Origin: Lysobacteraceae bacterium
GTDB taxonomy: Bacteria; Bdellovibrionota; UBA1018; JAGTJX01
NCBI GenBank assembly: GCA_023657465.1
Contig: JAGTJX010000003.1
Location: 862,830-926,829 of the forward strand
Length of the DNA: 64,000 nucleotides
Direction of reading: 5' to 3'
Part shown: positions 59,334 to 63,998 of the stretch, in pieces
Position numbering within the stretch: the first letter of the stretch is position 1
How the letters are laid out: each line of letters starts with the position of its first letter
Notes under the pieces: model-generated
What the model saw: the letters and a program-made list of their open reading frames with translations, nothing else
The model's database searches: none
What the model was told of the DNA's origin: nothing
Program-made: the position numbers and the translations under genes

Positions 59334-61088
59334 ATGCAACGTTTCGCTATTCAGGCTGCTGAACTCATCGCCGATTCCCTAGGGAAACCCTTCACTGTAG
59401 AGGAACTCTCCATTCCACAGGATAGAACTCACGGTGACTTCGCCTTCCCTTGCTTCAAAATGGCAAAGGAACTGAGAAAAGCACCTCCCGAAATCGCAAA
59501 AGATTTCGCTTCGAAGATCCAATCTTCTGCACACAAATATTTAAGTTCATTCACGGTTGCGTCTGTTGGCCCATTCGTCAACTTCACCGTCACTCGTGAA
59601 GCAGCGATGAACGCATTCCTTCCTCAAATTCTAGAAGGTGCTGATTGTGGATCATTTGGAAAGTTGAAGCCTGGTTCACGTGGCAAGTGGACTCTCGAAT
59701 TCAGCTCACCCAATATCGCAAAGCCTTTTAATATTTATCACCTTCGAGGAACAGCTCTCGGCGCTGCTCTCTCTCGAGCGGGTGTACACCGTGGATTCGA
59801 TGTCGTAAAAATCAATCACTTAGGTGATTGGGGAACACAATACGGTAAACTTGCTGTCGCGTTCAAACTCTACAAAAACGAAATGCCAGCCAATCCCACG
59901 ATTCCTGATTTGGTGAACATCTACGTGAAGTTCCACCAAGATCTCGAGAAAGATCCCACACTCGAAGATCAAGCTCGCCAGGCATTTGTTAATCTCGAAA
60001 ACAACGAACCCGAAATCACAGCCCTGTGGAAGAACTGTGTAGAGATCGCGCTCAAAGAATTCACAGCAACCTACAAAAGACTCGATATCGAGTTCGATCA
60101 TTACTGGGGTGAGAGCTTCTACAAGGACTTACTGAAGCCACTTGTTCAAAAACTAAAAGATCAAAAACTATTAGTCGAAAGCGAAGGCGCATGGATTGTT
60201 CCTGTCACCGACCGTGAAGGCCGAGAGATTCCTCCTTGCATCTTGGAGAAGAAAGACGGCGCTTCGATTTATGCAACTCGAGATCTCGCGGCTGCAATCT
60301 ATCGCCATGACAAGTTCAAGTTCGATCGCATGACTTACATCGTAGGCCAAGAGCAGAAGCTTCATTTTCAGCAAGTCTTCGGTGTACTCCGCAAGATGGG
60401 GTTCGAGTGGGAGAAAGTCTGTGAGCATGTCGCTACAGGCCTCTACCGATTCAAAGATGCTAAAATGTCTACTCGCAAAGGCAACTTCGTCACGCTTGAT
60501 AGCGTCCTTGAAGAAGCCAAAACAAAATCAAAAGAATTACTCATCGCTCGCACTCAAGATACGCGCACTCAATACCAAGACTTCCCTGGTGGCTACGATG
60601 GATTCATTGAGGAGACTTCAGAAGCAGTCGCAATTGGTGCTGTCGTATTCCATGACCTCTCTACAGATCCTGCACGTGATGTAGAATTCGACTTGGATAG
60701 AGTCGTGAGTTTCGAAGGCGAGACTGGACCTTACCTTCAATACGCTTATATCAGGTGCTTGAGCATCTTAAGGAAAGCAGGACGTGATGCTGATTTCAAC
60801 CCTGCTCTCATCGCTCGGCTTACTCATCCAGCTGAACTCACTCTCGTGAAACAGTTGGGACTCTTCGGAACACATCTGGATCGCACACTGAATTTCGCCA
60901 AGGCTTCTCAGCTTTGTAACTTCCTCATTGATGTCTCTAAGGACTTCGGACACTTCTATAGAGAGTGCCATGTGATGGGAGATGACCCAGAACTCACCAG
61001 TGCACGTCTCATGCTCGTCGAGTCCACTCGCAGGATCATGGGCTTGGGCATGAAGATCTTAGGCGTTCCAAGACCGAGCCGAATGTAA
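59334..61088 (+). CDS. argS: Arginyl-tRNA synthetase
   Basis: Class I synthetase, 584 residues. The N-terminal add-1 domain (about 1-110) precedes SSPNIAKPFNIYHLRGT, INHLGDWGTQYGKL, the KDAKMSTRKGN signature and the anticodon-binding DALR domain (LQYAYIRCLSILRKAG onward). The HIGH motif, usually HxGH after KPF, reads NIYH: both the first His and the Gly are replaced. The rest of the active site is normal, so I expect a functional variant. Confidence 0.95.
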   Translation: MQRFAIQAAELIADSLGKPFTVEELSIPQDRTHGDFAFPCFKMAKELRKAPPEIAKDFASKIQSSAHKYLSSFTVASVGPFVNFTVTREAAMNAFLPQILEGADCGSFGKLKPGSRGKWTLEFSSPNIAKPFNIYHLRGTALGAALSRAGVHRGFDVVKINHLGDWGTQYGKLAVAFKLYKNEMPANPTIPDLVNIYVKFHQDLEKDPTLEDQARQAFVNLENNEPEITALWKNCVEIALKEFTATYKRLDIEFDHYWGESFYKDLLKPLVQKLKDQKLLVESEGAWIVPVTDREGREIPPCILEKKDGASIYATRDLAAAIYRHDKFKFDRMTYIVGQEQKLHFQQVFGVLRKMGFEWEKVCEHVATGLYRFKDAKMSTRKGNFVTLDSVLEEAKTKSKELLIARTQDTRTQYQDFPGGYDGFIEETSEAVAIGAVVFHDLSTDPARDVEFDLDRVVSFEGETGPYLQYAYIRCLSILRKAGRDADFNPALIARLTHPAELTLVKQLGLFGTHLDRTLNFAKASQLCNFLIDVSKDFGHFYRECHVMGDDPELTSARLMLVESTRRIMGLGMKILGVPRPSRM

Positions 61089-61090
61089 CC

Positions 61091-61360
61091 CCGCTCCCGT
61101 TCGTACGTCTGATATTTTACTCCTATCTATCCAAACGACCAGCTTGCTGAGTTTCATGCCAGCGGATGCGTGCTCCCTTTTTCTTTTTCAAACCGCACTC
61201 GAACGGGCTCCTGCCCTTTTATGGGAGCGCATCCAGCTCCATAAAATCTCGTGCTCATTGAAAAAGAAAGAGGGAGAGGCATGCAAAGCAGGAGCTGTAC
61301 TCAGCAAGCTGGTCGTTTGGATAGATAGGGATAGAGAATGAGATGTACGAACGGGAGCGG
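61091..61360. repeat. 270-bp imperfect palindrome filling a convergent gap
   Basis: Starts two bases after the argS stop and ends two bases before the stop of the next (minus-strand) gene. Terminal 16 bases (CCGCTCCCGTTCGTAC) are perfectly complementary. 61122-61152 and 61299-61329 give a further 31-bp perfect stem, and the CTTTTTCAA/TTGAAAAAG region a third. The centre has its own stem (TTTTATGG...CCATAAAA). An internal CGAACGGG can also pair with the outer ends, so alternative folds exist. Could be a bidirectional terminator, a MITE, or a structured RNA. Confidence 0.85.
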
Positions 61361-61362
61361 AA

Positions 61363-61734
61363 TTAGTTCGACTCAGTATCAGTCTGATCGAGGATCACAT
61401 GAGCAAGCTCAAGATCTGTGACTTGCTCGTCTAGCTTCTTGAACTCATCGGACTCGCGCATCTTGCTCATCAATGATCGAAGTAACTCTGAAGAGCCTTC
61501 GCCTTCGTTCATGATGAATATTGCTGCGTCTTCAGCGATGACATTCATCGCAGCTTCTTTGTTCTTCGAAGATTCCTGAACTGATCCTGTATCAGAAGCA
61601 ACCAAGTAAACCGCAACTGCTGTCACAGCTAGTCCACCAATCGTTGTCCATGTGAGTGTCGAGAGTGCCTGGGCTCTCGGAGCAGAAACACTGAGGGTAA
61701 CGATGGTCAAGAGTGACAAGATTAAGTTTTTCAT
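61363..61734 (-). CDS. Small secreted protein, paralogue of the gene at 63651
   Basis: 123 residues with a signal peptide (LSLLTIVTLSVSAPRAQA), a short hydrophobic segment (IGGLAVTAVAVYLVA) and a conserved C-terminal region NVIAEDAAIFIMNEGE...LRSLMSKMRESDEF, DLELAHVIL. The same blocks occur at 63651-63998. It follows the Lnb/zincin gene and may serve it. Function unknown. Confidence 0.7.
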   Translation of the reverse strand: MKNLILSLLTIVTLSVSAPRAQALSTLTWTTIGGLAVTAVAVYLVASDTGSVQESSKNKEAAMNVIAEDAAIFIMNEGEGSSELLRSLMSKMRESDEFKKLDEQVTDLELAHVILDQTDTESN

Positions 61735-63650: not shown

Positions 63651-63998
63651 CTATTGCTCGAGAGCAAGTTCAGACTGATTGAGGATAGCGCGAGCGAGAT
63701 CCATATCAGTGATTTCTTCGTCGATTTTCTGCATATCTCCATTTGCTCTCATTTCATCCATCATCGAGCTCAAGAGAGCTGATGGGTTCTCGCCATCGTT
63801 CATGATGAAAGCTGCTGCATCGTCAGCAACTACGTTAAGAACAGCTTCTTTACCACCTGAAGAGGCCTGAACAGAAGCGACTCCACCTGCTAAAAAGTAG
63901 GTAAGAACAAGTCCTGCTGTTGTACCCAAAATTGTAATGGCTACATCAGAAATTGCGTGTGCTTTTGGAGGAGCTACAAATAGAGTTGCTGCCACCAT
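63651..63998 (-). CDS. Small secreted protein, possibly cut at the N-terminus by the window edge
   Basis: At least 115 residues. The visible start (MVAATLFVAPPKAHA) is the hydrophobic end of a signal peptide lacking its basic residues, so the true start probably lies beyond 64000. Shares NVVADDAAAFIMNDGE, SSMMDEMRANGDM and DMDLARAIL with the gene at 61363. Upstream of the Lnb/zincin gene and separated from it by a terminator-like hairpin. Confidence 0.7.
   Translation of the reverse strand: MVAATLFVAPPKAHAISDVAITILGTTAGLVLTYFLAGGVASVQASSGGKEAVLNVVADDAAAFIMNDGENPSALLSSMMDEMRANGDMQKIDEEITDMDLARAILNQSELALEQ

What the first reader, a model, noticed from the sequence alone, without database searches (positions are those of the whole stretch)
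61091..61360. 270-bp near-palindrome exactly filling the gap between two convergent genes
The element begins 2 bases after argS and ends 2 bases before the opposing gene's stop. It has nested perfect stems of 16 and 31 bp and an alternative pairing through an internal CGAACGGG. A simple terminator needs about 35 bp. Transcribed from either side it would form a very long hairpin. A MITE, an RNA processing or double-stranded RNA element, or a structural chromosome site are all possible. Long palindromes are usually unstable, so persistence suggests selection or recent insertion.
Basis: seen in the sequence. Interest (0 to 1): 0.75.

Follow-up and report, generated by a model that had tools for sequence, protein, structure and literature searches.

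The report
Capped long-hairpin repeat after gene ends
The long palindrome between argS and its neighbour is one copy of an undescribed family of hairpin elements in Bdellovibrionales bacteria, in which a conserved folded tip sits on arms that pair with each other but differ at almost every site, directly behind gene stop codons.

Summary
The palindrome is real (MFE -174 kcal/mol, z = -21) and not single-copy. Its inner ~150 bp recurs about 13 times in the same genome. Its tip, a 57-73-nt three-way-junction "cap" (hairpin GGGC-TCCT-GCCC plus a helix with a CGC[A/T]TCACGCTT bulge), recurs in 7 of 58 genomes of the class (31, 13, 9, 3, 2, 2, 1 copies) and in two further Bdellovibrionales MAGs; Rfam has no match. 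Cap helices covary strongly: 22 of 24 pairs change on both sides, with almost no G-T pairs. Below the cap the arms stay self-complementary but are mostly unrelated between loci (16-139 nt here, up to ~178 nt elsewhere). They usually begin at a stop codon, mostly between convergent genes or, in one genome, in sense orientation behind a gene. Cap-less gene ends almost never carry such stems. Best reading: a dispersed structured hairpin element at gene 3' ends, whose arms are made or kept complementary by fold-back/template-switch copying, acting as a large 3'-end structure and transcription barrier. The family is shown; mobility, copying mechanism and transcriptional role are inferred. It failed the tests for a RAYT-type REP and, at this site, for a classical terminator.

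The parts
61086..61152 (.). outer left arm, locus-specific; strong pairing from the ArgS stop codon inward
   Evidence: inverted repeat I1, 87% complementary; no counterpart in the other copies of the genome
61299..61365 (.). outer right arm, locus-specific; reaches the stop codon of the opposing gene
61151..61171 (+). internal-loop module, left strand (GTTTCATGCCAGCGGATGCGT), shared by 8-9 copies of this genome
   Evidence: pattern search in own genome, 9 places at up to 3 mismatches; 3 reversed-pattern control hits
61280..61302 (+). internal-loop module, right strand (CATGCAAAGCAGGAGCTGTACTC), shared by 8 copies
   Evidence: pattern search, 8 places, 0 control hits
61173..61198 (.). inner stem, 5' side; sequence varies between copies while pairing is kept
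   Evidence: I2; helix 4 has both-side changes at 15 of 20 pairs
61251..61276 (.). inner stem, 3' side
61196..61252 (+). conserved three-way-junction cap
   Evidence: covariance model R2, 51.4 bits in L001:1606-1662, which is window 61196-61252
61205..61216 (+). cap hairpin H1 GGGC-TCCT-GCCC; 4-bp stem covaries, TCC loop largely conserved
   Evidence: helix 2; alignment printed
61217..61246 (+). cap helix H2/P3 with the CGCATCCAGCT loop (CGC[A/T]TCACGCTT bulge elsewhere)
59334..61088 (+). argS, gene on the left
   Evidence: TIGR00456 427 bits; PF00750/PF05746/PF03485
61363..61734 (-). small exported DUF2388-like protein, opposing gene
   Evidence: ORF; TIGR02448 19.7 bits, below cut-off; its paralogue 63651-63998 matches PF09498

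Best explanation
The palindrome is one copy of a dispersed, non-coding hairpin element of Bdellovibrionales. Shown: a conserved three-way-junction cap sits on stems whose sequence is free but whose pairing is kept; in this genome and in G039 the stem is interrupted by a conserved two-stranded internal-loop module; the base of the hairpin lies at a gene stop codon, mostly between convergent genes. Inferred: the element spreads as a structured unit recognised through its cap and loop sequences (as single-stranded DNA or RNA); after it lands behind a gene, its hairpin lets a nascent DNA strand fold back and copy the adjoining flank (template switching), which makes the locus-specific arms and keeps them matched; the finished structure acts as a 3'-end hairpin and a barrier between converging transcripts. 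Of the inferred steps, arm formation and maintenance by fold-back copying is the best supported, the identity of the mobilising enzyme the least.
For: Multi-copy core in own genome. Cap in 7 of 58 genomes of the class and in two further Bdellovibrionales MAGs by an exact pattern over 85k genomes. Covariation of the cap: 92.7% of cells paired, 22/24 pairs with both-side changes, 226 such cells against a shuffled mean of 65, 0/500 shuffles; slid controls 37-49% paired (alignment fitted to the model). Full core of this genome: 20/49 pairs, 0/500. Almost no wobble in the cap helices: 543 Watson-Crick, 4 G-T, 3 A-C; in the arms G-T is not commoner than A-C, 11 v 24. Compensation without G-T intermediates is what template switching predicts (PMC8794818). 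Arm complementarity far above chance (scores 16-126, null maximum 14) while arms of different copies mostly do not match. In G039 the left and right arm of a copy agree at 90% in the first 30 nt, different copies at 70%; the pattern reverses in the internal-loop zone. Long stems are rare without a cap: no exact stem over 12 bp at 327 gene ends of this genome, none over 7 bp at 98 ends of G026. Position: in this genome 7 of 9 caps convergent against 53/305 gene pairs, p = 1e-4; other genomes agree; tandem copies 23 sense v 7 antisense, p = 0.005. Arms start at or just inside the stop codon in most of 19 G026 copies, in 9 of them including the stop or last codons.
Against: No empty site could be compared: no genome of the same family is held. 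No transposase or other enzyme is linked to the caps in the regions examined. G000 and G039 copies lack a T-run after the hairpin, so termination is not shown. The conserved asymmetric internal-loop strands would be erased by unlimited fold-back copying, so selection on structure must act too. The coding-tail similarity at the argS site is partly native: the DUF2388-like tail shares its ELAHVILDQ stretch with its paralogue. In 336R the arms are shared between copies, as for an element with its own arms.
Confidence: 0.5

Rival explanations
1. A structured RNA element of the 3' untranslated region (a processing signal, protein-binding element or 3'-derived small RNA). The cap is bound as RNA, and stems drift under compensatory selection in copies that are old at each site.
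For: Conserved loops with covarying stems; sense bias of tandem copies; position directly behind the stop codon; in G026 10 of 31 copies have a T5 run within 45 nt behind the cap, against about 9% by chance.
Against: G-U pairs are almost absent in the cap helices and not favoured in the arms, unusual for RNA-level selection. Four copies with ~90-93% identical cores have completely different arms, which gradual drift does not explain. Sense and antisense copies coexist. Rfam has no match.
Confidence: 0.27
2. A mobile hairpin element that targets existing terminator hairpins and inserts at their tip; the locus-specific arms are the pre-existing terminator stems.
For: Arms are locus-specific while the core is shared; some G026 arms look like terminators with A- and T-runs; in 336R an element with its own shared arms is flanked at L127 by a further short locus-specific inverted repeat.
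Against: Cap-less gene ends with long stems are very rare in both genomes, so suitable targets hardly exist, and arms of 60-139 nt have almost no cap-less counterpart apart from L078/L094 and the second palindrome of L011, of which L078/L094 belong to another repeat family.
Confidence: 0.15
3. A REP/REPIN or other RAYT-mobilised palindrome.
For: The genome encodes one IS200-type Y1 transposase (26 bits); dispersed and extragenic.
Against: A different short palindrome (GAGCGGGAAACARCGAAGYTGTTTCGTG, 10 copies, no long arms) lies next to that transposase gene; no GTAG tag at the foot; size several times that of a REP; low copy number.
Confidence: 0.05
4. An ordinary, unusually long bidirectional terminator or an assembly artefact of no wider meaning.
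For: Convergent genes often share a terminator.
Against: No T-run at this site; shared core and cap in many copies and several genomes; copy lies well inside a contig.
Confidence: 0.03

Closest known systems
REP/BIME/REPIN palindromes with RAYT (TnpA-REP) transposases
   Same: Dispersed extragenic palindromes that can be recognised as single-stranded hairpins; loop and bulge bases matter for recognition (PMC8266576)
   Different: REPs are 20-40 bp with a GTAG or CGTC tag (PMC3733652); here 100-400 bp, no tag found, a multi-branched cap, site-specific arms, and the genome's RAYT-like gene has another palindrome beside it
Intrinsic transcription terminators
   Same: Hairpin immediately behind stop codons; some G026 copies carry A- and T-runs
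   Different: Conserved cap and internal-loop sequences, very long arms, no T-run in the window copy
MITEs and long imperfect palindromic repeats such as ERIC (from own knowledge)
   Same: Non-coding dispersed inverted-repeat elements
   Different: MITEs conserve their terminal repeats; here the terminal arms are the least conserved part and the centre is conserved
Template-switch mutations that create and repair hairpins (PMC8794818)
   Same: Produces perfect arms in one event and multi-base compensatory changes without G-U intermediates
   Different: Described there for RNA genes; here arms of 60-139 nt grow around one recurring conserved cap
Structured RNA families of Rfam
   Same: Covarying helices around conserved loop sequences
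   Different: No match in Rfam 15

Membership tests
RAYT-associated REP | GTAG or CGTC tetranucleotide at the foot of a 20-40 bp hairpin | tested here: not met
   No GTAG at the foot; hairpin about 270 bp; a lone CGTC at 61107 lies within the arm and is not conserved
RAYT-associated REP | copies flank the RAYT gene of the genome | tested here: not met
   The gene at C2:508923 is next to a different palindrome family; the second, weak Y1_Tnp hit on C3 was not examined for neighbours
RAYT-associated REP | high copy number (often over 100) | tested here: not met
   About 13 partial or full copies here, 31 at most in a relative
Intrinsic terminator | GC-rich hairpin followed by a run of T | tested here: not met
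   0 of 9 copies in this genome have T5 within 45 nt behind the cap; G026 10 of 31
Intrinsic terminator | stops transcription | not testable with these tools
   needs RNA-seq or a reporter
MITE | conserved terminal inverted repeats | tested here: not met
   Outer arms are locus-specific in this genome and G026; shared in 336R only
MITE | target-site duplication | not tested
   no empty site available
Rfam RNA families | match to a curated covariance model | tested here: not met
Structured RNA (general) | covarying helices with conserved loops | tested here: met
Structured RNA (general) | wobble pairs used as intermediates | tested here: not met
   4 G-T against 543 Watson-Crick cells in the cap helices
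IS200/IS605-type single-strand transposon | own Y1 transposase between the ends | tested here: inconclusive
   No obvious element-borne gene between neighbouring caps in seven G026 regions by ORF layout; those ORFs were not searched against family libraries

The most novel reading that the evidence does not exclude
The cap is a snap-back device: each time it is copied behind a gene, its folded tip primes DNA synthesis (or reverse transcription) back along the strand just made, writing a reverse-complement copy of the gene's own tail behind it, so that the element builds a made-to-measure long hairpin at each new site.
Probability: 0.18. Interest if true: 0.9.

Novelty: new variant of a known kind. 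Interest (0 to 1): 0.62.

Why it matters
A repeat whose centre is conserved and whose ends differ at each site inverts the usual anatomy of mobile elements. If arms are written from the neighbouring gene end, it is a natural system for watching how long hairpins arise and stay matched, a question studied so far mostly by reconstructing RNA genes, and it would mean that small parts of protein tails can be rewritten by a neighbour. It also adds a new structured motif to a bacterial order whose gene ends carry few ordinary hairpins.

Tried and rejected
Twin pseudoknots: in this genome GCAGGAGC (61288-61295) is complementary to GCTCCTGC in the cap (61207-61214), and GGATGCG (61164-61170) to CGCATCC (61228-61234), but 3 of 8 aligned copies break one of these pairings (L002, L006, L008) and I saw no such complementarity in G026 or G039, so it is not claimed. 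Strand-specific RNA test by energies of the two strands: no consistent asymmetry. ArgS search over named genomes: no relative found. Pattern in viral contigs: no match. Six Pseudomonas pattern hits are near-identical among themselves, lie beside a strong terminator, do not form the cap arrangement and were set aside as chance matches in a conserved stretch. Tail overwriting at the argS site: score 36 against a null maximum of 28, but part of the similarity is native to the DUF2388-like family, so it is only suggestive. RAYT link rejected.

Full report
Observation. The 270-bp near-palindrome is present as described. It lies between the stop codons of argS (59334-61088, +; TIGR00456) and a small DUF2388-like exported protein (61363-61734, -). 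Its + strand folds at -174 kcal/mol against -81 for shuffles, and nothing else in the window comes near.

Copies in the same genome. The genome (G000, 2.83 Mb in four contigs) holds about a dozen further full or partial copies of the inner ~150 bp, three of them 90-93% identical. Reading them side by side shows four layers: a tip, an inner stem, an internal-loop module with two conserved and different strands (left GGYTCATGYNAGCGGATGCGT; right CATGCGAAGCAGGAGCTGTACTC), and outer arms. The tip and the module are conserved. The inner stem changes sequence but stays paired: 20 of 49 pairs have changes on both sides, 0 of 500 shuffles reach this. The outer arms are different at almost every site yet complementary to each other, from 16 to 139 nt. 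Only three copies (L006, L009, L013) share an outer motif.

Copies elsewhere. A search of order relatives with the tip pattern GGGCTCCTGCCCN{6,36}CGCATC gave four copies in genome G026 of another family, none with the reversed control pattern. They have the same architecture, with an extra apical hairpin in the second cap helix. An exact 24-letter pattern run over 85k genomes hit Bdellovibrionales MAGs (SYLX01, JANXMF01, JAIXQO01) and one conserved stretch in six Pseudomonas genomes that does not form the cap. A covariance model of the cap found it in 7 of 58 genomes of the class with 31, 13, 9, 3, 2, 2 and 1 copies. On 39 distinct sequences 22 of 24 pairs have both-side changes and 92.7% of cells are paired, against 37-49% when slid (the alignment was fitted to the model, which leans towards the structure). 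Rfam 15 has no match.

What kind of structure maintenance. In the cap helices 543 cells are Watson-Crick, 4 are G-T and 3 are A-C. In the arms G-T (11) is not commoner than A-C (24). RNA-level compensation normally passes through G-U; matched changes without it are what DNA template switching produces (PMC8794818). In G039 the arms continue to about 108-178 nt and fill the gap between convergent genes just as in the window; within a copy left and right arm agree at 90% next to the cap whereas copies agree with each other at 70%, and in the internal-loop zone the order reverses. Unlimited fold-back copying would erase that asymmetric module, so selection on the structure must act as well.

Position. 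Using simple ORF calls, 7 of 9 scored caps in this genome are between convergent genes (base rate 53 of 305 pairs, p = 1e-4), and 23 of 34 in all genomes other than G026 (p = 1e-10, taking the G000 base rate as reference). In G026 tandem copies are sense to the upstream gene 16 to 3; in all genomes 23 to 7, p = 0.005. The cap usually lies 8-22 nt behind the stop codon in G026 and the arm begins at the stop; in 9 of 19 the arm includes the stop or last codons. Cap-less gene ends carry exact stems of at least 6 bp in only 13 of 98 cases in G026 and 51 of 327 in G000, none longer than 12 bp. So long stems go with the cap, and the idea that the element merely fell into ready-made long terminators is weak.

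Arms and coding tails. At the argS site the similarity of the two arms continues into both coding tails; a tail-against-tail test gives a score of 36, null maximum 28 in 1500 pairs. Tails at L078, L004 and L005 are weaker (p 0.003-0.02) and five other pairs show nothing. Because the opposing gene shares part of that tail with its own paralogue in the window, I treat this as suggestive only.

Other readings. A RAYT-type REP is not supported: the one clear Y1 transposase gene has a different palindrome next to it. A classical terminator is not met at this site for lack of a T-run, though about a third of the G026 copies have one. No autonomous partner gene was recognised among the ORFs between neighbouring caps in G026, but they were not searched against protein libraries. 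A pseudoknot between loop module and cap was considered and not supported.

Conclusion. The family, its anatomy, its covariation and its position at gene ends are shown. That it spreads as a unit, that its arms are written by fold-back copying, and that it blocks transcription are inferences. I rate the composite explanation at 0.5 and a purely RNA-level element at 0.27.

Noticed in passing
L078:1605-1845 (G000 C2:21604-21844) and L094:1501-1648 (G000 C2:659543-659690): A second, unrelated family of long hairpins (75% identity over the inner 150 bp) with the same habit. L094 follows an AbiEii (PF08843) toxin-antitoxin operon; L078 lies behind a two-gene operon of similar layout that has no AbiEii match in Pfam.
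   Followed up: partly
L011:1700-1910 (G000 C2:440299-440509): A second palindrome beside the cap copy; its left arm resembles an inverted copy of the C-terminal codons of the neighbouring spoVR-like gene.
   Followed up: partly
L021:8669-9286 (G000 C2:508668-509285): A 178-aa IS200-type Y1 transposase with a 10-copy REP-like palindrome GAGCGGGAAACARCGAAGYTGTTTCGTG next to it; one REP copy is nested inside cap-family element L013.
   Followed up: partly
G026 copies, right flank of the arms (listed): GCA, often GCAA or CGCAA, within about 10 nt behind the right arm in 13 of 27 copies against 11% by chance; it may mark an element border.
   Followed up: no
L006, L009, L013; also L068 and L072: Shared outer motif GGTANTCCCATACTTCACGTAGCG, six places in the genome, with or without the cap family.
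   Followed up: no
L189-L201 (G039): G039 copies carry their own conserved internal-loop module (left about ATATCCGCAGCCACCTGTGCCGT, right arm read inverted about ACGTCCTCGCCACCTGAAATC) at the place of the G000 module, with a different sequence.
   Followed up: partly
window 61363-61734 and 63651-63998: Two paralogous small DUF2388-like exported proteins flank a large Lnb_N/DUF7844 protein.
   Followed up: no
L008 (G000) and L115/L169 (G026): Cap copies next to a lolA-like gene in both genomes, behind it in G000 and before it in G026; possibly coincidence.
   Followed up: no
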